Shown here one piece after another: positions 5,995-15,396 of a stretch of 24,356 bases of DNA. A program made the position numbers and the translations under genes. Where the stretch lies: IMG/VR virus record IMGVR_UViG_3300036828_000592, positions 1 to 24,356 of that record. One strand, given 5' to 3'. Numbering within the stretch: position 1 is the stretch's first letter; every line of letters begins with the position of its first letter. The notes under the pieces were generated by a model, which had not been told where the DNA came from, ran no database searches, and saw nothing but the letters and a program-made list of their open reading frames with translations. The DNA is from a virus.

Positions 5995-6378
5995 ATGTCT
6001 GGTCCCGCTTATTACACCGGTACGATGAACATCGCGATGAACGATGATTGGATCGTGCCGTTCCTCTATGAATCCCTCGGTAGCGATGGCGTCACCTTGA
6101 CGCCGATCGATCTCACCGGGTCGACGTTGATGATGGAAGTCAGAACAAGCGAGAGTGATCACAACGTCGCCGTCTCAGTGTCATCGTCTCCTCCTAGCAG
6201 TGGGATTCAAATCACCAATGCGACCGGTGGCATGTTCACCATCACCTTAGATCGCAATCGCTTGAGCCAATTGTCGCCGGGCAACTACGTCAGCGATCTC
6301 GTGCGGCTGATGCCGTCCGGCTGGCAAGAACGGCTCTGGGAAGGCACCGTCACCGTTGTCGAGGGCACGACGCGGTGA
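5995..6378 (+). CDS. small fibre-cluster protein, function unknown
   Basis: 127 aa. ATG at 5995 was chosen because it lies just after the tailspike stop and leaves only a short gap; a longer frame upstream would overlap the tailspike gene. The sequence is beta-rich (an [13 protein letters not shown] strand near the start, an [11 protein letters not shown] strand, then [15 protein letters not shown]) and looks like a compact Ig- or jelly-roll-like domain. Small proteins of this kind often sit between tail fibre genes in Rhizobiales phages, possibly as fibre adaptors, but I do not recognise a named family. Its TGA overlaps the GTG start of the next fibre gene. Confidence 0.55.
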
Positions 6379-7742
6379 GCACGCAAGTTCTCACGGTCCC
6401 GCAGACTGGACCCCCCGGTCCGGTCGGACCGACTGGGCCGCAGGGCGTTCCTGGTCCGCCTGGTCCGCAGGGCCCCGGTGGCACCGGCCAGCAGGGCGAG
6501 CCGGGACCGCAGGGGCCAATCGGGCCGCAAGGCCCAGGTGGCACAGGGCCGGCGGGACCGCCGGGGCCGCAAGGGCCGACGGGGCCGCAGGGGCCGATCG
6601 GCCTGCAAGGCCAGATGGGCACCCCGGGGCCGGCAGGGCCGACTGGCGCGCCCGGCCCACAGGGCCCGGCCGGCGATATCACCGGCGCCGTGCGCTACGA
6701 TCAAACGCAGGTGCTCACGGCGCCGCAGGCGCTCACGGCCAGGCAGAACATTTTTGCCGCGCCGATCGACAGCATGATCGAGAATAATCTGATCATCAAT
6801 GGCAGCTTCAACGTCGCGCAGCAGTACGGAAGCAATGTAGTCAGCCTTGGCACCGGCAACAATTCGGTTTGGGTTCTTGACCAGTGGAACACGGTTCAGA
6901 ACAGTTCGGTGATGACCTCCGCGTGGAATAAGCAGACGTCGAATTTTCCGTATGGCTATTCATCCGGGATCGGAGGTAGCGTCGGCACTGCCAACCCAAG
7001 TCCAGCGGCCACCGACTATCTCTCTCACCAGCAGAAGATCGATGGGGCTCAGATAGCACGACTGCAGTGGGGCTCGGGGGGCGCCCGGCCCGTGACGCTC
7101 GGCTTCTGGGTCGCGATGACCGTGCCCGGCACCTACTCGGTGACACTTCGTGACACCGTCTCGGGGCAGTGCTATCCGGCGACCTACACGATCAACGCGG
7201 CGAACACCTGGGAGTACAAGACCATCGTCATCCCGGGCTGCACCGCAGGCACCTCGTGGAGCGGTGGGCTCTTCATAGTCTTTACGCTGGTGTGCGGCTC
7301 CAACTATCTCGGAGTGCCGAACACCTGGCAGAGCGGCAACATCGTCGCCGCCAATAACACGAATAATTTTGCGGCGGTCGTCAACAACGCCTGGATCACA
7401 GGTGTGTCCCTGCTGCCGGGCAACGACGCGCCGGCCAGCGATCGCGCCCCGCTGCTGATGCGAAGCATCGCGAACGAGCAGCTGATGTGCGAGCGCTGGT
7501 TCAGATACCTGCGCGGCGTGGGCTTCTACGGCTACGCCCCGACGTCGATAACAGGCATCGGAGGCATCGTCTTTCCGGCTATGCGCAAGGCACCGGCGGT
7601 GACGTTCGCCAACACGACCTACACCAACGGCAGCGCCCTCGCATTGAACGCGGCCAGCGTGAATGCGGCAGTCGTGCAGTGGACGATAGCCGGCGCCCCT
7701 AGCTTCGTCTCAACCGACATCCTGCTCGACGCGAGGTCTTGA
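6375..7742 (+). CDS. collagen-like tail fibre protein 1
   Basis: 455 aa from GTG at 6375 (GTGA overlap with the upstream stop). Residues about 12-100 are uninterrupted Gly-X-Y collagen-like triplets, which form a rigid trimeric shaft. After a DITGAV linker comes an [10 protein letters not shown] motif typical of phage fibres, then a beta-rich C-terminal domain (about 140-455) beginning with an [13 protein letters not shown] segment that resembles carbohydrate-binding or receptor-binding fibre tips. The shaft contains 37 codons identical at DNA level to fibre 2. Together the two genes look like duplicated receptor-binding adhesins. Confidence 0.75.
6417..6527 (+). repeat. 111-bp identical direct repeat, copy 1 (fibre 1 shaft)
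   Basis: This stretch is identical by eye to 7858-7968 (offset 1441 bp). It encodes 37 residues of Gly-X-Y shaft in both fibre genes in the same frame. Sequence flanking the block diverges, including at third positions, so recent exchange rather than slow divergence is likely. Confidence 0.9.
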
Positions 7743-7743
7743 A

Positions 7744-8967
7744 GTGTCAAACGGCGGCGAGCGATTCAATCTTTCCAGCGGCACGCCGCGCATCACGCTG
7801 ATCAAGAGCGCGACGGCGGAAAATCAAACGCTGACGGTGCCGGCGCAAGGCCCGGCGGGTCCGGTCGGACCGACTGGGCCGCAGGGCGTTCCTGGTCCGC
7901 CTGGTCCGCAGGGCCCCGGTGGCACCGGCCAGCAGGGCGAGCCGGGACCGCAGGGGCCAATCGGGCCGGCGGGCGTACAAGGGCCGATAGGAAATACCGG
8001 TGCGACGGGCGCGCAGGGGCCGCAAGGCACGACCGGCGCGACCGGCGCGCAAGGGCCGATCGGAAATACGGGGCCGGCAGGGCCGACTGGCGCGACAGGG
8101 CCGCAGGGGCCGGCCGGTCCGGTGCCCGAAGCGCCGACCGACGGCGCGACCTACGGGCGATCGAATTCCGCCTGGGCGGGTGTCTTGCCGATCATTGGCG
8201 GCACGCTGACCGGGGCGCTGACGCTCAATGCCGATCCGGCATCGAACCTCCAGGCGGCGACCAAGCAGTACGCCGACCACAACGTCCGCTGGGACGCCGC
8301 GCAAGCTCTGACGGCGCCGCAGCAGGTCCAGGCGCGCGCCAACATCAACTCGTTTTCGCTGCGCACCCGCACCGTCATAACAACCGGCAGCGGCACCTAC
8401 ACGACGAAGGCCAACTGCGTTGCCATCAACGTCCGCATGGTCGGCGGCGGCGGCGGCGGCGGCGCTGGCGGCACCGGCGGCAACGATGGCTCGAACGGAA
8501 CGGCGTCGACGTTCGGATCGCTCTCGGCCGGCCCCGGCACCGGCGGCCTGCAAAGTCAAGCAGGCAAACCCGGCAGCGGTGGCATCGCATCAGGCGGCGA
8601 CGATAATCAGACCGGCGGCGCCGGCGGAAATGGTTTTACTATTCAATCAGCCTCCGCCGGCCCTGGCGGCTACGGCGGCAATAGTCTCCGTGGTGGCGCA
8701 GGCGCGTGCGGCACGGGCAACGTCGGCCCCAGTGCCGGCACGCCCAACAGCGGCGGCGGTGGTGGTGGTGGCACCTCCATCACCAGCAACCAATGCACGG
8801 GCGGCGGCGGCGGCGCTGGCGGCTATTGCGAGAAGCTGATCGTCCCGCCGGCTGCGAGCTACGCCTTTGCCGTCGGCACAGGCGGCGCCGCAGGAACCAT
8901 CGGCACAGGAAGCCAGCCTGGAGCCGCAGGCGGTTCCGGCATCATCATCATCGACGAGTATTACTGA
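7744..8967 (+). CDS. collagen-like / glycine-rich tail fibre adhesin 2
   Basis: 407 aa from GTG at 7744, 1 nt after the fibre 1 stop. Residues about 35-129 are collagen-like triplets. A helical segment follows (about 160-205, with an [11 protein letters not shown] motif common in phage fibres and an [17 protein letters not shown] motif). From about 225 the protein is a Gly-rich sandwich of short Gly runs and Ser/Thr/Asn segments, ending with a conserved strand-rich close ([10 protein letters not shown]). The Gly-rich half resembles polyglycine-II type adhesin tips known from T-even-like phages, so receptor binding is the likely role. Confidence 0.72.
7858..7968 (+). repeat. 111-bp identical direct repeat, copy 2 (fibre 2 shaft)
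   Basis: Second copy of the segment at 6417-6527, in the same codon phase. Recombination between the copies would produce a hybrid fibre with the N-terminus of fibre 1 and the tip of fibre 2, and would delete about 1.44 kb. Confidence 0.9.
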
Positions 8968-9352: not shown

Positions 9353-9853
9353 TCATTGCAACGTCCCGCGCGGCGGCAGCATGCCGACCATCCGGCCTTC
9401 CGACTGGAGCGCAGCGCCACGCGGTTCGATCAGCACCTCAAGCGGCGCCAGGTAGGGTCTCTGATTGGCCGGCCGCATGATGCGGCGGTGCGCCACGATC
9501 TGTCCGCAGTCCCGATCCTCGCCCTGGATCACGACAACCTCAACCCGGTCAGGATGCGATGCAACGCCGTGCCGGTAGATCGAGTCCAGCTCTGCCTTGT
9601 CGTTGATAGCGCGCTCGATGGTCCACGCCTCATCAACGAAAACATAGCGCACCACATCCTTTGTTTTGAAAAAAGCGCGGACCATGGCGACGCACGTGTC
9701 TTTGCCGAGAAACGACGGCGGCTCCACATCAAACTTCTCGCCGCTCGCCGAGACCGCAAACCACATCGGAGCTACCATCCCTGTCCCGCGGAATGCGACG
9801 TCGCATGCGCGAGAGGTGACGGCGATCATCTTGCGTAGCTCTTTTTCGCTCAT
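9353..9853 (-). CDS. unknown protein at the 3' end of the tas-like operon
   Basis: 166 aa. ATG at 9853 was chosen because GGAGG lies about 7 nt upstream; an in-frame TTG 6 nt earlier is less likely. I do not recognise the family. It is a mixed alpha/beta soluble protein: an N-terminal helix (SEKELRKMIAV), strands around APMWFAVSASG, a helix with CVAMVRAFFKT, the strand-rich VVRYVFVDEAW, then RVEVVVIQGED near residue 110. No membrane segment or recognisable catalytic motif is seen. It is the last gene of the minus-strand operon and is separated from the tas-like gene only by a solitary guide-array unit. That placement links it to the system, perhaps as an accessory factor, but this is inference. 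Confidence 0.7.
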   Translation of the reverse strand: MSEKELRKMIAVTSRACDVAFRGTGMVAPMWFAVSASGEKFDVEPPSFLGKDTCVAMVRAFFKTKDVVRYVFVDEAWTIERAINDKAELDSIYRHGVASHPDRVEVVVIQGEDRDCGQIVAHRRIMRPANQRPYLAPLEVLIEPRGAALQSEGRMVGMLPPRGTLQ

Positions 9854-9875: not shown

Positions 9876-9973
9876 GTGAGCCCGGCACACTTAACGTGGG
9901 CATCACTTGGGAAGTGGCCGGGCTCGACGGTCGCATCACGTCCTTGGGCTTCAGTGCGCTATTGGCGACCGCA
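9876..9973 (-). repeat. solitary double-hairpin guide unit (U1) downstream of the tas-like gene
   Basis: Same architecture as the main array, placed exactly in the gap between the tas-like stop (9977) and the next start (9853). Stem 1 arms are at 9878-9886 and 9917-9925, stem 2 arms at 9927-9934 and 9965-9972. Plus-strand 9-mers are cacttaacg and cttgggaag in loop 1 (core tgggcatca), and tcacgtcct and gtgcgctat in loop 2 (core tgggcttca). The first base of the stem 2 left arm is A instead of G, which becomes a G-U pair in a minus-strand RNA. Because it lies outside any ORF, it argues that the element works as RNA or DNA rather than as coding sequence. Confidence 0.9.
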
Positions 9974-9976
9974 ACT

Positions 9977-10864
9977 CTATGCTGCTGGACGACGGTCAAG
10001 CGCGCGCTTTTTCGCCTTTGCCTGGACCGGCTTCTTCGCCTTCGCCGACTTCACCTTCGGCTCGACCGGCTGCACGGTGGGATTCTTCCACTCGACCAAC
10101 AAGTCGATGAGGAATTGCTTCATCGCAATGCGAATCCCGTCCATGCGGCGGTGGCCATCGGACCAATCCGGATGCGTTTCAATCGTGTGCTTGCGCCGCG
10201 CAGCATAAACTTCGCCATATGGGCCATTTGGTTTGCCTTCGCCGTCATCGGTCTTAGCTTTGCCGATCCACTGCGAGTTAACGAGCCATAATGCGATTTG
10301 ATGCATCAGCGCGTAACGCTCGCCCGAGAACGGATGCGCCTTCCACTCTTCGCTCGAAAGCACGCGATGCCGCCATGTTTTCCTTTTCCACGTCGAGCCA
10401 GCGAGGCCTTCAAAAGGGGCGAAACCAAGCCTCGACCAGAGCTTCGCCGGGTTCGCGTAGTTTGATAGATCGCCGGCCTCGGCCACGATCGTCGCCAGCC
10501 CGAGCGCGCCGGCACCATGCACGCTCACGATCCATGGGTAGACCGGGAGCTGCATCGCCAGTTCCGCGATGCGGGCCTCGGTTGCCTCCCGGCTATCATC
10601 AGCCGGCGCGCGCGCCTTGTCGCTCACCATCACCGTATCGGCGTATTCGTGATCTGCTCCAGCGCGGATCGCCTTGATGGTCGCGCGGACTTCCTTGTTG
10701 ATTTGCGCGCGCTCGGCCTCGCTCATCTCTGGGTGCCACTCGGTCGTGTTGATGCGTAAGAAGCTCTCGAGCGCGCGATCGAGCTTCTGTTGTATCTTCA
10801 TTGCGAACCGGCGACGCCGATGATGTCGGCGGATTTCGTTGATGATCTCTTCAGTTGTAGCCAT
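9977..10864 (-). CDS. Tas-like protein with IS110 Transposase_20 / Nop-like core
   Basis: 295 aa. ATG at 10864 was chosen for the GAGGAG about 8 nt upstream; longer upstream frames run through array unit U2. Residues 1-105 are helical and charged, like the coiled-coil part of IS110 proteins. Residues about 107-200 match the Transposase_20 pattern: VHGAGALGLATIVAEAGD (helix-hairpin-helix), then LSNYANPAKLWSRLGFAPFEG, with a serine in LAGSTWKRK where IS110 enzymes carry their SG motif. Residues 216-260 contain YGEVYAARRKHTIETHPDW and a final helix. Residues 268-292 are a Lys/Arg-rich tail. No RuvC DEDD domain or clear HNH is seen. With guide-like array units on both sides, this fits a TIGR-associated (Tas) RNA-guided protein, probably nuclease-less. 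A domesticated IS110 recombinase is the alternative. Confidence 0.8.
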   Translation of the reverse strand: MATTEEIINEIRRHHRRRRFAMKIQQKLDRALESFLRINTTEWHPEMSEAERAQINKEVRATIKAIRAGADHEYADTVMVSDKARAPADDSREATEARIAELAMQLPVYPWIVSVHGAGALGLATIVAEAGDLSNYANPAKLWSRLGFAPFEGLAGSTWKRKTWRHRVLSSEEWKAHPFSGERYALMHQIALWLVNSQWIGKAKTDDGEGKPNGPYGEVYAARRKHTIETHPDWSDGHRRMDGIRIAMKQFLIDLLVEWKNPTVQPVEPKVKSAKAKKPVQAKAKKRALDRRPAA

Positions 10865-10889
10865 TGCCTTTCTCCTCGTTCGAGAAAAA

Positions 10890-10987
10890 GTGAGCCCGGC
10901 ACGAGCAGCTTGGGCATCAACGCACGCGTGGCCGGGCTCGGCGGTCGCATTCGCCTTATGGGCATCAACCCGGTGTTGGCGACCGCA
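10890..10987 (-). repeat. solitary double-hairpin guide unit (U2) upstream of the tas-like gene
   Basis: A complete unit fills the gap between the 201-aa gene (ends 10995) and the tas-like start (10864). Both stems are perfect (stem 1 GAGCCCGGC/GCCGGGCTC, stem 2 GCGGTCGC/GCGACCGC). Plus-strand 9-mers are cgagcagct and acgcacgcg (core tgggcatca), then ttcgcctta and acccggtgt (core tgggcatca). It would be transcribed in the leader of the tas-like gene, so it could give guides from the same mRNA or influence tas expression. Confidence 0.92.
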
Positions 10988-10994
10988 ACTCTCT

Positions 10995-11600
10995 TCATGG
11001 CGAGCTTGGCGGCCCGATCTCCTGCACATGCGCCGCGGCAACAAGGTCGCGCGCCATCTTGGCGCCGCCGTCGCGCAGCAGCTCCGCCGCGCTGATTTTC
11101 GCCTTCTCCATGATGGTGGTCACGACGCCGGGCTTGATGGCTTCCTCGACCGTGACGAACGGATCGGCGGTGACGCAATGCTTCGACAGCATAATGCAGA
11201 GGAAAGTCTCCACCGCGTCGTCGTAGCCACGCTGCAGGAAGCTTGTCGCCGTCGTCGCCGACGCCTCGGCGATCGCGTGCAGGTCGTTGATCCGGATATC
11301 GCCCAGCCGGCGGCCACCGCGCATTGGTTTATCGAAGATCGCTTTCGTGTAGATTTTCTCAGCCGCCAGCGCGCCGGCCTTCTGCGCTTTGCTCGGCATC
11401 GGTGATCGGTGCGGGCCCTCGCGCCGTCGCGATGGGGTCTCCTTCTTTCTTCTGTTGCTGAGCGGCGTGAGATAATTCGACGCGATGGCGACGCGCAGCT
11501 CGCCATCGGTCTTGAGCATGGCCGCCAACGCGTTGACCGCGGCGGTAATGGATTTATGCTCCTTGAGAAGTGCCTTTGCGCTTGCTTCGAGCTTGCTCAT
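10995..11600 (-). CDS. unknown basic protein between guide array and tas-like gene
   Basis: 201 aa. ATG at 11600 was chosen for the GAGGA 7 nt upstream; an upstream ATG would start inside the array. I do not recognise it. Residues 1-42 are predicted helical (a KALLKEHKSITAAVNALAAM stretch), residues 44-66 are strongly basic (NRRKKETPSRRR), and the rest is helical with a DDAVETFLCIMLSKHCV segment near 127-143 and a C-terminal helix before a PPSSP end. An alternative start at residue 68 (MPSKAQK) is possible. Its position between the array and the tas-like gene, on the same strand, suggests a dedicated partner, for example for RNA or DNA binding, guide processing or nuclease recruitment. No motif proves any of these. 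Confidence 0.72.
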   Translation of the reverse strand: MSKLEASAKALLKEHKSITAAVNALAAMLKTDGELRVAIASNYLTPLSNRRKKETPSRRREGPHRSPMPSKAQKAGALAAEKIYTKAIFDKPMRGGRRLGDIRINDLHAIAEASATTATSFLQRGYDDAVETFLCIMLSKHCVTADPFVTVEEAIKPGVVTTIMEKAKISAAELLRDGGAKMARDLVAAAHVQEIGPPSSP

Positions 11601-11616: not shown

Positions 11617-12942
11617 TCAAAAGTGTGAGCCCGGCACAAGGTCACTGGGCATCAGGGCTGGCATGGCCGGGCTCGGCGATCGCATCGGTTGATTGGGCCT
11701 CAAAGAGGCGTTGGCGACCGCAACAGGAATAGGTGAGCCCGGCATTGAGGTCGTGGGCCTCAACAAGACCCTGGCCGGGCTCGGCGGCCGCAGGCTCTTG
11801 CTGGGCTTCACCGAAGCGATGGCGACCGCAGTTCGAAAGGGGGAGCCCGGCACAAGATAGTTGGGCATCAGAGGCGCCCTGGCCGGGCTCGGCGGTCGCA
11901 TCGCTGACATGGGCATCAATCTTGGGATAGCGACCGCAGTTCGATTAGGTGAGCCCGGCACGCCGTCACCGGGCGTCAGTCGTTCGTTGGCCGGGCTCGG
12001 CGGTCGCAAGTCATCTCTGGGCTTCACAAGCTCGCTGGCGACCGCAATAGGGAGAAGGGGTGAGCCCGGCACGCCGCCTCTGGGCTTCATCAGGAGGTTG
12101 GCCGGGCTCGGCGGTCGCAATTGATTCCTGGGCATCATTCCGCCGGTGGCGACCGCATTCGAAAAAAAAGGTGAGCCCGGCACTCCCATTCTGGGTTTCA
12201 GGGCGGCCCTGGCCGGGCTCGGCGGTCGCAGGGGCCCGATGGGGCTCAAGGTCCGAATGGCGACCGCAACGTGAATAAGGGAGCCCGGCACAAAAGTCCT
12301 GGGCTTCAGGTGCAGATTGGCCGGGCTCGGCGGTCGCAGCCGAGGTATGGGATTCACGGCTCGCTTGGCGACCGCATTCGGTTTGATAGGTGAGCCCGGC
12401 ATCCTCGTAGTGGGCATCACGGCATCGATGGCCGGGCTCGGCGGTCGCAATTTCCTTTTGGGCTTCACGTAGCCATTGGCGACCGCATTCTCGTTGATAG
12501 ATGAGCCCGGCAAAACGTCATTGGGCATCATGACTATTCCGGCCGGGCTCGGCGGTCGCACGGTGTACCTGGGCTTCAGACCCGCGATGGCGACCGCAAC
12601 TTGATGAAGAGGTGAGCCCGGCATCCGGTTTCTGGGTTCCAAGGTCTGCCTAGCCGGGCTCGGCAGTCGCAAGCGAGCCGAGGGCTTCACTTCATCTATG
12701 GCGACCGCATTCTGATTGAAGGGTGAGCCCGGCAATCCATTTCTGGACATCAACGTCATCGTGGCCGGGCTCGGCGGTCGCAAGGCCAGGATGGATTTCA
12801 CGGGAACGCTGGCGACCGCATTCGAGATGAAAGGTGAGCCCGGCATCTTGCCCTTGGGTTTCATGGTCATGATGGCCGGGCTCGGCGGTCGCAAGATCGC
12901 GATGGGTTTCATCGGGCGGATGGCGACCGCATTCGAATTCAT
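11617..12942 (-). other. 441-codon open frame running through the whole array
   Basis: The minus strand is open from ATG at 12942 to a stop at 11617-11619. The frame encodes a periodic Pro-rich peptide with a conserved NAVA-(3-4)-KP-(3-4)-RPPSPA-(4)-KP-(4)-PGSP pattern every 36-37 residues. Its ATG overlaps the TGA of the upstream 73-aa ORF (ATGA), and AGAGG lies about 10 nt upstream. All 11 linkers are 10 or 13 nt, so the frame is never lost. Against a protein role, isolated units occur outside ORFs, and three of the stem substitutions inspected change amino acids while keeping RNA pairing. One reading is that ribosomes traverse the array to prevent premature (Rho-type) termination, or that the frame is fortuitous. 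Confidence 0.35.
11625..12931 (-). repeat. TIGR-like guide array: 12 double-hairpin units, 24 modules, 48 nine-nt spacers
   Basis: Unit starts are 11625, 11733, 11841, 11949, 12060, 12171, 12279, 12390, 12501, 12612, 12723 and 12834; each body is 98 bp, linkers 10 or 13 nt. On the plus strand each unit is GAGCCCGGC-A, 9-mer, core, 9-mer, TG-GCCGGGCTC, then GCGGTCGC-A, 9-mer, core, 9-mer, TG-GCGACCGC. Nine-mers per unit, loop 1 pair; loop 2 pair: caaggtcac gggctggca; tcggttgat aagaggcgt | ttgaggtcg acaagaccc; ggctcttgc ccgaagcga | caagatagt gaggcgccc; tcgctgaca atcttggga | cgccgtcac gtcgttcgt; agtcatctc caagctcgc | cgccgcctc tcaggaggt; attgattcc ttccgccgg | ctcccattc gggcggccc; ggggcccga aggtccgaa | caaaagtcc ggtgcagat; gccgaggta cggctcgct | tcctcgtag cggcatcga; atttccttt cgtagccat | aaacgtcat tgactattc; cggtgtacc gacccgcga | tccggtttc aggtctgcc; agcgagccg cttcatcta | atccatttc acgtcatcg; aggccagga cgggaacgc | tcttgccct tggtcatga; agatcgcga tcgggcgga. 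No 9-mer recurs. The minus-strand core consensus is TGANGCCCA. Stem substitutions preserve pairing only on the minus strand, matching the strand of the neighbouring tas-like gene. Confidence 0.95.
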
Positions 12943-13160
12943 GACCAGCGATCCTCTTCGTTTTCCTCGAGACGTCCGCCGATCGTCACCGACGCCTCGC
13001 GAATCGTTGCGAAGAAGAGCGCTCTGCAGCGCGAATTCTGTCGCACGACGGAGCGGCGGATCGAGCCGACCAGCTCGCCATCAGTGGCGCCCGGCGCGGT
13101 CAAGTACGCGTTCAAGAACGCTCCCTCTTCACGCATCGTCAGGCGCCCGCGCTCGGTCAT
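12939..13160 (-). CDS. small unknown protein upstream of the guide array
   Basis: 73 aa from ATG at 13160, which overlaps the TGA of the excisionase-like gene (ATGA); an upstream in-frame ATG at 13184 would overlap further. I do not recognise a family. The sequence has an EEGAFLNAYLTAP segment, then GELVGSIRRSVVRQNSRCRALFFATIREASVTIGGRL, and an acidic end. Its own stop overlaps the start of the frame through the array. It is either a real small coupled gene or the coding leader from which transcription enters the array. Confidence 0.5.
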   Translation of the reverse strand: MTERGRLTMREEGAFLNAYLTAPGATDGELVGSIRRSVVRQNSRCRALFFATIREASVTIGGRLEENEEDRWS

Positions 13161-13360
13161 TGACGCGTCCATCGCTCCCGCCATTCTTCAGCGGCGGCGC
13201 GGCTGATCCGCACATGCCTGCCGATCATGATCACTGCGGGGCCATCCCCACGGTCGCGCATTGAGTAATAAAGGCGAGGGCTGATGCGGTTGAGTGAACA
13301 GAATTCCGCGATTGTAAGCATGTCGGAATCAGCGGTTTGTCCTTTGTCCTGGCTGGGCAT
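13157..13360 (-). CDS. excisionase / AlpA-like helix-turn-helix protein
   Basis: 67 aa. The sequence LTIAEFCSLNRISPRLYYSMRDRGDGPAVIMIGRHVRISRAAAEEW has the layout of MerR-type winged HTH DNA-binding proteins of the excisionase/AlpA group: a HTH (about 15-35) and a wing ending in an RISRAAAEEW helix. Such proteins control excision directionality or activate phage promoters. It is the first gene of the minus-strand operon and is divergent from the integrase across about 460 bp. That suits a recombination directionality factor, and it places the guide array and tas-like gene under the same promoter. The 13360 ATG is used because an internal ATG at 13321 has no ribosome site. Confidence 0.78.
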   Translation of the reverse strand: MPSQDKGQTADSDMLTIAEFCSLNRISPRLYYSMRDRGDGPAVIMIGRHVRISRAAAEEWRERWTRQ

Positions 13361-13819: not shown

Positions 13820-15070
13820 GTGAGCATCCACAAATTGACGGCTACCAAGGTCGACCGGCTGATCCAAGGGCGCAAGCTCGGCAAGCACAGCGACGGCGGC
13901 GGCCTGTACCTGCGGGTCGACGAGGGCGCCGATGGCGGCACGCTCTCGTCCTGGGTTTATCGCTACCAGCGCGGCGGAGGCGATACCATGATGGGCATCG
14001 GCCCCACCCATATGTACGATCTTGAAGCCGCGCGCGAGCGAGCCCGGAAGGCGCGCGTTGACGTCGCGGAAGGCCGAGACCCGAGGACCGGCGTCAAGGT
14101 CGGCGGCACCAGCAAGACCTTCGCCGAATGCGCCGACGAGTGGTTCCCGAAATATCGGGCAGACCTCTCGGGAGCCAAGGGCGCCAACGATCTAAAGGTC
14201 GCCTTTGAAGCCTACGTCTACCCTGTGCTGGGCTCAGTTCCGGTCGACGCGATCGACCATCACCTCGTCCTCAAGGTGGTCGAGCCGATCTGGCTGACGC
14301 GTCGCAAGCTCGCCCCGGCACTACGCGGCAAGATCGAGAAAATTCTGGAGTACGCAAAAACCCGCGGCTACCGCACGGGTGACAACCCGGCGCAATGGTC
14401 GCTGCTGTCGACGGTGCTGCCGTCGGCTTCCTACGTCCCCAAGAACCATGCTGCTCTGCCTGATGCCGACTTGCCGGCCTTCATGATCGAGCTGCGCAAG
14501 GAGACGGGCGTTGCGGCGCGCGCGCTCGAGTTCTCCATCCTGACCGCCTGCCGGACGGGCGACATCAAGGGCGGCGATCAGTCGGATGCCGAGCCGCGGC
14601 CGCCGATGCAGTGGTCGCACATCGATTTCGAGGCGCGCTGCTGGAGCATCCCGATCACCAAGAACGGGTTGAAGCACAAAATCCCGCTCTCCGATCGCGC
14701 GATCGCCATCCTCAAAGAGATGCGCGGCTACGGGCTTGATGACCAGCTCGTGTTCCCCTCGCTCGACAATCCAGGCCGGCCGATGTCCCATCGCGCCCTG
14801 CCGGCGGTGCTCAAGCGCATGGGGCGCGCCGGCCAAGTCACGGTCCACGGGTTCCGCGCGACCTTCAAGACGTGGGCGGAAACGCGGAAGCCGAATAAAT
14901 TCGACGAGCGTGTTGTCGAGGCTGCGCTCGCGCATACTCCGGAAAAACTCCGCAAGGCATATTTCCGGAACGACCATTACGACGACCGCATCCCGCTGAT
15001 GGCGGCGTGGGCGGCTTACGCGAACGGCGGCGCGCAGATCATTCCGTTCCGCAGCGCAGAGGTGGCGTGA
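13820..15070 (+). CDS. int: tyrosine recombinase integrase (P4-like, DUF4102 N-terminus)
   Basis: 416 aa from GTG at 13820, selected because AAGGAG lies 9 nt upstream; an in-frame ATG at 13640 lacks a site. Residues 1-90 are the arm-binding DUF4102-like domain (KVDRLIQGRKLGKHSDGGG, YLRV). Residues about 100-200 are the SAM-like core-binding domain. The catalytic domain has R245 in ILTACRTGDI, K281 in ITKNGLKHKIPL, H343/R346 in VHGFRATF, H372 in ALAHTPEKL and nucleophile Y381 in RKAYFR, so all key residues are present and it should be active. It integrates and, with the divergent Xis-like protein, excises the phage genome. It is immediately followed by a partial duplicate of its N-terminus. 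Confidence 0.95.
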   Translation: MSIHKLTATKVDRLIQGRKLGKHSDGGGLYLRVDEGADGGTLSSWVYRYQRGGGDTMMGIGPTHMYDLEAARERARKARVDVAEGRDPRTGVKVGGTSKTFAECADEWFPKYRADLSGAKGANDLKVAFEAYVYPVLGSVPVDAIDHHLVLKVVEPIWLTRRKLAPALRGKIEKILEYAKTRGYRTGDNPAQWSLLSTVLPSASYVPKNHAALPDADLPAFMIELRKETGVAARALEFSILTACRTGDIKGGDQSDAEPRPPMQWSHIDFEARCWSIPITKNGLKHKIPLSDRAIAILKEMRGYGLDDQLVFPSLDNPGRPMSHRALPAVLKRMGRAGQVTVHGFRATFKTWAETRKPNKFDERVVEAALAHTPEKLRKAYFRNDHYDDRIPLMAAWAAYANGGAQIIPFRSAEVA

Positions 15071-15072
15071 TT

Positions 15073-15396
15073 ATGAACATCCATAAATTGACCCCGCTTA
15101 AGATCAACCGGCTGATCCAGGGTCGCAAGTTCGGCAAGCACAGCGATGGCGGTTGCTTGTATCTGCGGATCGCCGAGGGCGCCGACGGGTCCGTTCTGAC
15201 GTCATGGTTCGTCCGCATCTATCGCAACGGGCGCGAGAGCCAGATTGATTTCGGCGATAGCAGTCTGACCACCGCGCGCGAAATGGCCAAAAAGGCGCGC
15301 ATCGATCTTTGGGAAGAGCGCGCGCACGAACGCGCTGAACTCCATGGCACTGGTGCATACGCACTAATCAACCAACCGAAGGAAATACTCCGCTGA
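15073..15396 (+). CDS. truncated second copy of the integrase N-terminal domain
   Basis: 107 aa beginning just after the integrase stop. Residues 1-46 (IHKLTPLKINRLIQGRKFGK, HSDGGCLYLR, EGADG, SW) closely match integrase residues 2-45, and the following KARIDLWEERAHERAE aligns with the end of that domain. There is no core-binding or catalytic domain. DNA identity between the copies is also high, so this is a tandem partial duplication. As an arm-site-binding module without catalysis it could compete with integrase at arm sites and modulate recombination; it could equally be a decaying fragment. The intact frame and adjacent start favour expression. Confidence 0.75.
   Translation: MNIHKLTPLKINRLIQGRKFGKHSDGGCLYLRIAEGADGSVLTSWFVRIYRNGRESQIDFGDSSLTTAREMAKKARIDLWEERAHERAELHGTGAYALINQPKEILR

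What the first reader, a model, noticed from the sequence alone, without database searches (positions are those of the whole stretch)
9876..10987. Solitary guide units placed precisely in the two gaps flanking the tas-like gene
U1 lies between the tas-like stop and the next start, U2 between the 201-aa gene and the tas-like start, each filling the gap almost completely. They are full units with their own four 9-mers. Placement in the mRNA leader and trailer of tas suggests a fixed role, for example guides with conserved self or regulatory targets, or autoregulation of tas by Tas binding its own transcript.
Basis: partly seen in the sequence, partly recalled or inferred. Interest (0 to 1): 0.72.

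Follow-up and report, generated by a model that had tools for sequence, protein, structure and literature searches.

The report
Phage guide-RNA cassettes between operon genes
A phage carries a recently described RNA-guided DNA-binding system whose guide RNAs sit not only in one array but also, one at a time, in the gaps between operon genes; related phages keep the position and scaffold of these guides but change what they aim at, so they look like exchangeable ammunition rather than fixed regulators.

Summary
Observation confirmed. U1 (9878-9972) and U2 (10892-10986), read on the minus strand like the genes, are complete two-stem guide units with four 9-nt spacers, in the gaps after and before a nuclease-less Tas (TasA-type) gene. 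Each starts 4-8 nt after a stop codon and ends 24-27 nt before the next ATG, sparing the ribosome site. The system is a stem-loop TIGR-TasA system (Faure 2025).

The placement is a family rule, not tas-specific. Among 24 non-duplicate Tas records, a unit directly follows the Tas stop in 14 and the F1 (201-aa partner) stop in 13; units also follow RecE (6/17) and RecT (3/14). Some relatives have gap-free junctions, so unit plus ribosome site looks like an inserted cassette.

Spacers are not conserved. In three relatives (Tas DNA 89-96% identical) the U1-position unit differs at 6/186 scaffold sites but 76/108 spacer sites (pairwise). U1/U2 have no better-than-random joint match in their own contig. 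'Conserved self or regulatory targets' is not supported; autoregulation by Tas binding its transcript is untested.

Unexpected: three Tas-less records carry exactly one orphan unit after RecE. Natural targets remain unknown.

The parts
9878..9972 (-). U1: two-stem guide unit (stem 1 GCGGTCGC, stem 2 GAGCCCGGC; 4 spacers of 9 nt), after the Tas stop
9977..10864 (-). Tas-like gene, TasA type: Nop-domain protein, 295 aa, no nuclease domain
10892..10986 (-). U2: two-stem guide unit between the F1 stop and the Tas start
10995..11600 (-). F1: 201-aa partner gene, helical, no known fold; found in 24 of 24 non-duplicate Tas records
11627..12930 (-). main array: 22 half-units = 11 two-stem units
9353..9853 (-). 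next gene downstream of U1 (166 aa from ATG), unknown function; its Shine-Dalgarno lies between U1 and the ATG
13157..13360 (-). small excisionase/HTH-like gene upstream of the array, same strand (weak PHROG match)

Best explanation
U1 and U2 are ordinary guide cassettes of a stem-loop TIGR-TasA system. Shown: the family places two-stem guide units, each followed by a ribosome site for the next gene, in stop-to-start junctions of a phage operon (F1, Tas, and in many relatives RecE and RecT), on the same strand as the genes; scaffold and position are kept, spacers are replaced, and whole units or half-units appear to reassort between related phages. Inferred: the operon mRNA is cut into its units, each stem-loop being loaded as a tigRNA onto the TasA dimer, which binds but cannot cut DNA matched by the two 9-mers of a loop; the targets are variable foreign DNA (most simply competing mobile elements) and not the phage's own tas. 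The intergenic position is a place to carry extra guides without breaking a reading frame, not a signal for tas.
For: Tas identity: predicted model matches TasH Z 14.2 and TasR Z 13.2; NCBIfam TIGR-Tas model E 4.8e-16. Boxes CCA and TG flank the 9-nt spacers on the gene strand, as in Faure 2025. Junction rule. Inserted-cassette reading: eight unit-less loci have RecE/RecT overlapping by 1 nt (TGATG or TAATG), four unit-bearing loci have TGA-AAGTTT-[unit]-ACCATCTTTAACCAACGAGGAAATGAG-ATG (alignment); F1/Tas overlap by 4 nt in five carriers without a unit there. Spacer turnover with constant scaffold: Tas-trailer unit 76/108 vs 6/186, RecE-RecT cassette 129/216 vs 9/372 pairwise differences. Reassortment: G008 shares half 1 with G018 but half 2 with G011 and G053. 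No self target; no clear excess of carrier or sibling targets over shuffles.
Against: No target was found for any guide, so 'foreign DNA' is inference. Three Tas-less records carry a single orphan unit, which guides for a co-encoded TasA do not explain. The local change between G008 and G009 could reflect recombination hitchhiking rather than selection for new spacers. About ten guide pairs are nearly shared between or within records, so some targets may persist. The order of the two 9-mers at the target was inferred from the overhang described in the paper.
Confidence: 0.7

Rival explanations
1. Autoregulation: Tas binds the unit scaffolds in the leader and trailer of its own mRNA, or processing there cuts the mRNA, so tas is repressed or its transcript end is set. 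Spacers are irrelevant.
For: A unit lies close before the Tas domain start in 17 of 24 records and follows the stop in 14 of 24; scaffold is conserved.
Against: Same placement at F1, RecE and RecT; five carriers have F1 and Tas overlapping with no unit before Tas, and seven of 24 have none within 160 nt before it.
Confidence: 0.15
2. Structural element: units act as intercistronic hairpins that separate or protect cistrons, and the guides are secondary.
For: Position after stop codons; orphan units in Tas-less phages; two stable stems.
Against: Orphans keep the 9-nt spacer length and box motifs, which a hairpin does not need (one orphan has CCT in place of one CCA box); unit-less relatives do without any element at the same junction.
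Confidence: 0.08
3. Guides with conserved self or host-core targets fixed beside tas.
For: A few guides are nearly shared (10 pairs with at most 4 of 18 differences, within or between records, against 2, 3 and 0 in three shuffles), so some targets may persist.
Against: Spacers at the U1 position are near random between close relatives; no own-contig match. Host genomes could not be searched.
Confidence: 0.05

Closest known systems
Stem-loop TIGR-TasA systems (Faure et al. 2025, PMC12045711)
   Different: Here two different stems alternate strictly, 2-6 nt apart, as one unit; single units fill junctions of an operon with F1 and in many relatives RecE/RecT; orphan units occur without Tas. The paper's main text does not contain the word RecT; it describes three subarrays separated by about 450 nt and dual-repeat arrays sometimes between tasParB and tasA
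IS110/IS621 transposase with bridge RNA
   Same: Homologous fold (Z 12.0 to 8wt6) and an RNA made of two guide-bearing loops
   Different: No DEDD/RuvC domain (IS110 profile matches only from position 116); many units; no transposon seen
Box C/D snoRNP (Nop5, Nop56/58)
   Same: Same fold class (Z 7.8 to Nop5), C and D boxes, two guides per RNA
   Different: Fibrillarin and L7Ae were not searched for; TIGR systems target DNA, not RNA (paper)

Membership tests
TIGR-Tas | Nop-domain Tas protein | tested here: met
   AF2 model vs TasH Z 14.2, TasR Z 13.2; NCBIfam TIGR_Tas_endo E 4.8e-16 but 59 bits, below that model's cut-off of 100; the model is named for the endonuclease
[quoted passage not shown]
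   26 half-units with 9-nt spacers, CCA and TG boxes (the scan tolerates one missing box letter)
TIGR-Tas, stem-loop type | palindromic sequence closing each unit | tested here: met
   8-9 bp stems; stem position 9, outside the scan's own criterion, pairs in 257 of 375 vs at most 207 in 200 shuffles
TIGR-Tas | units processed into tigRNAs bound by Tas | not testable with these tools
   needs RNA sequencing
TIGR-Tas | the two spacers of a unit pair with opposite strands of one DNA target | tested here: inconclusive
   no clear excess of joint matches over shuffles in 1.9 Mb (both strands) of carriers or 0.4 Mb of siblings
TasH/TasR | HNH or RuvC nuclease domain | tested here: not met
   295 aa aligned to the Nop part only, no other Pfam/PHROG domain
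IS110 transposase | N-terminal DEDD domain | tested here: not met
   profile match of P0001 starts at IS110 position 116 of 343

The most novel reading that the evidence does not exclude
The functional guide is the whole two-stem unit: a four-spacer, bridge-RNA-like RNA with which nuclease-less Tas holds two DNA sites at once; such units travel between phages as self-contained junction cassettes (unit plus ribosome site), exchanging half-units, and orphan cassettes in Tas-less phages work in trans with a Tas supplied by another phage. Supporting pattern: 104 stem1-stem2 steps with 2-6 nt linkers, 66 stem2-stem1 steps with 8-36 nt, only 3 like-like steps; all three orphans are full two-stem units.
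Probability: 0.2. Interest if true: 0.85.

Novelty: new variant of a known kind. Interest (0 to 1): 0.6.

Why it matters
Faure et al. call the origin and turnover of TIGR arrays and the function of nuclease-less TasA open questions. This family offers near-identical phages that differ in single units, empty and filled junctions side by side, orphan units without Tas, and a constant unknown partner (F1): material with which guide turnover, unit mobility and TasA function can be tested directly. It also links a TIGR system to a phage RecE/RecT recombination operon.

Tried and rejected
Self-targeting: U1/U2 and all window guides against the window, both spacer orders, gaps 0-2; best matches 4-6 mismatches for U1/U2 (random guide pairs mostly 4-5): rejected.

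Carrier and sibling phages as targets: 319 half-units against 1.9 Mb of both-strand carrier sequence (no difference from controls) and 375 against 34 de-duplicated sibling loci of 46 (60 hits with at most 2 mismatches against 42, 42, 47 and 56 in four shuffles): no clear excess.

RecE/RecT as targets: suggested by single matches (G016 guide against G009 RecE, 17 of 18; G011 guide against sibling RecE genes). Counting guides with a hit in RecE, RecT or Tas gave 7, 8, 1 against 3-11, 1-9, 0-5 in 20 shuffles: rejected as a general rule.

Guides tracking codon wobble of a protein target: looked striking by eye for two guide families (SPW[TS]LE and T[SL]SHVP); a permutation test over seven guide pairs that I had picked gave P 0.71: rejected. 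Viral-contig scans with these two patterns gave 3 and 7 hits; one each fell in the expected frame in a phage exonuclease (L125, phrog_5715) and a major capsid gene (L187, similar to the PAJU2 head protein): not clearly more than chance, kept only as leads.

Hosts: in GTDB contigs 46 stretches matched a Tas peptide pattern but none was confirmed, and the unit pattern had no match; no match in plasmids, three partial matches (21% of the query) in INPHARED phages. Host unknown.

F1 identity: 10 weak Pfam labels, best DUF6195 E 4e-4, 4 of 12 members; no PDB sequence match below E 0.2, no Foldseek match below E 0.6: not assigned.

Cassette flank: a scan for the 25-base RecT-side flank found only the five contigs already known, so it added no new spacers.

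Full report
What is there. The window is a 24,356-base linear virus record. On its minus strand lie, in order of transcription, a small excisionase/HTH-like gene (13157-13360), an array of 11 guide units (11627-12930), F1 (201 aa, ATG at 11600), U2, a Tas-like gene (10864-9977), U1, and a 166-aa gene of unknown function. The other strand carries baseplate and tail genes before it and an integrase after it. U1 and U2 are at the stated places: U1 begins 4 nt after the Tas stop and ends 24 nt before the next ATG; U2 begins 8 nt after the F1 stop and ends 27 nt before the Tas ATG. What remains of each gap is a short ribosome-binding stretch.

Anatomy of a unit. The guide strand is the gene strand. 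One unit reads stem 1 (GCGGTCGC), CA, 9-nt spacer, a 9-nt loop element of the form TGAnnCCCA, 9-nt spacer, T, stem 1 complement; then after 2-3 nt the same again with stem 2 (GAGCCCGGC). The CCA and TG boxes at the spacer ends are those described for TIGR guides (Faure et al. 2025, PMC12045711; I read parts 1-5 of 12 of the text and passages by word search; no figures or supplements). In the main group of carriers (22 records) stem 1 and stem 2 alternate: 104 stem1-stem2 steps have linkers of 2-6 nt, 66 stem2-stem1 steps have 8-36 nt, and only 3 steps join like with like; 11 further steps involve a stem that my labels could not place. So the two-stem unit with four 9-mers is a real module. U1 and U2 fold as expected. 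Pairing at stem positions 1-8 is partly built into my scan; position 9 is not, and pairs in 257 of 375 half-units against at most 207 in 200 shuffles.

The protein. P0001 gave weak IS110-transposase matches. A profile of 14 relatives (A1) hits chain 9mty, E 3.7e-5, whose entry is TasR. An AlphaFold2 model (mean pLDDT 80) aligned to TasH (Z 14.2, 195 residues, 3.8 A), TasR (Z 13.2), IS621 (Z 12.0) and Nop5-type proteins (Z 7.8). NCBIfam's TIGR-Tas model matches 14 of 14 relatives, P0001 at E 4.8e-16 but under the model's cut-off. No nuclease domain was found, so it is of the TasA type.

Relatives. P0001 found 8 viral loci, the alignment 27, unit patterns 17 and 31 stretches; these overlap. I took 33 records (window included), whole or in part; 27 carry Tas, 24 after removing three near-duplicates (G017, G026, G032). 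F1 was found in all 24 (about half of them had been used to build its profile) and in none of 45 records without Tas that were searched with it (where the four Tas carriers included as controls all matched). F1 is helical without a known fold. Of the 30 non-duplicate records 17 hold a RecE-like exonuclease gene and 14 a RecT-like gene in the part read.

Placement. A unit starts within 15 nt after the stop codon of Tas in 14 of 24 records, F1 13 of 24, RecE 6 of 17, RecT 3 of 14; a unit lies within 160 nt before the domain start of F1 in 18 of 24, Tas 17 of 24, RecE 4 of 17, RecT 6 of 14. Gene order changes between phages but units still sit in the junctions. So U1 and U2 follow a general habit of the operon.

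Empty junctions. In eight unit-less loci closely related in RecE (some near-duplicates of each other) RecE and RecT overlap by one base (TGATG or TAATG). In four of the six unit-bearing loci inspected the same junction holds TGA-AAGTTT, a two-stem unit and ACCATCTTTAACCAACGAGGAAATGAG before the RecT ATG; the other two have other flanks (26 loci inspected). F1 and Tas likewise overlap by 4 nt in five carriers that lack a unit there. Unit plus ribosome site therefore behaves like a cassette; whether it was gained or lost in each case is not proven.

Spacers. In G008, G009 and G016 (Tas DNA 96.4, 88.9 and 88.6% identical pairwise) the unit directly after the Tas stop, the equivalent of U1, differs at 6 of 186 pairwise scaffold sites but at 76 of 108 spacer sites, near the 75% expected for unrelated sequence. 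In G008 and G009 the two half-units found nearest upstream of Tas are identical (36 of 36 spacer bases) and the third downstream one is 17 of 18, so turnover is local. The linker next to the changed G009 unit resembles that of G016, which points to exchange of whole units. In the RecE-RecT cassette of four phages the figures are 129 of 216 and 9 of 372, and G008 shares half 1 with G018 (14 of 18) but half 2 with G011 and G053 (16 and 15 of 18), which points to exchange of half-units. This speaks against conserved targets for the flanking units. No close relative of the window itself was found (nearest Tas about 62-64% identical), so the turnover is shown in relatives, not for U1 and U2 themselves.

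Targets. None found. Own-window matches of U1/U2 are as poor as random guide pairs; carriers and siblings give no clear excess, and RecE, RecT and Tas genes are not enriched. A codon-wobble signal that looked convincing by eye failed its test. The spacer order used first (spacer B, then the reverse complement of spacer A) is my inference from the 3' overhangs stated in the paper; the other order was run as well.

Orphan units. Of 58 viral loci with RecE relatives, 49 were searched through their records; the other nine lie in records already read. None of the 49 has Tas, 46 show no unit, and three (G018, 27 kb; G031, 47.6 kb; G053, 55.4 kb) have exactly one two-stem unit, directly after RecE. 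The Tas profile found 10 of 10 known carriers in a control run. These records may be fragments, so a Tas elsewhere cannot be excluded. G007 (40.6 kb) likewise has several units and no Tas match. Orphans may be remnants of a lost system, or guides used in trans.

How it most likely works. The operon transcript carries guides in its gaps and array. By analogy with the pull-down data of Faure et al. for a stem-loop TasA locus, each stem-loop is released and bound by Tas. Without a nuclease, Tas can bind but not cut. The exchange of spacers at fixed positions fits a changing set of foreign targets better than regulation of tas. Steps shown: anatomy, strand, protein family, placement, turnover in relatives. 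Steps inferred: transcription, processing, binding, targets, benefit.

Against print. Three literature searches of the held library returned one primary paper on TIGR-Tas and one review of it (PMC12385481, listing and start of abstract seen only), besides papers that mention it in passing. The primary paper mentions dual-repeat arrays between tasParB and tasA and subarrays separated by about 450 nt, but not RecT in its main text; its figures and supplements, where such loci may appear, were not seen. I therefore call this a new variant of a known kind, not a new kind.

Noticed in passing
G053 (L155:6928-7030), G018 (L132:6934-7040), G031 (L166:6924-7020): Exactly one orphan two-stem guide unit directly after RecE in records with no Tas and no F1 match.
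   Followed up: partly
L166:3086-4471: A protein that looks ParB-like by eye (recalled, not searched) lies upstream of RecE in the Tas-less record G031; Faure et al. describe a tasParB partner.
   Followed up: no
L017 (G011), L005 (G003), L006 (G004): Guide half-units lie inside the reading frame of the Tas C-terminal tail, as if a stop codon had been lost and a trailing unit absorbed into the protein.
   Followed up: partly
L019:1541-1702 and G012 about 650 nt upstream of Tas: Three half-units combine two A spacers and two B spacers: GGTCAGGTT/CTCCACGGA, CTCCTTCGG/CTCCACGGA, CTCCTTCGG/GCCGGCAAC, suggesting reassortment even within a loop.
   Followed up: no
window 13821-14002 and 15074-15255: Duplicated start of the integrase gene: a second, short ORF with only the arm DNA-binding domain.
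   Followed up: no
window 6375-8967: Two adjacent collagen-like (Gly-Pro repeat) genes in the tail region that share near-identical repeat stretches (seen by eye).
   Followed up: no
L026:4558-5040: The gene downstream of U1 has a 40% identical relative in another record (G019) that starts with a guide array.
   Followed up: no
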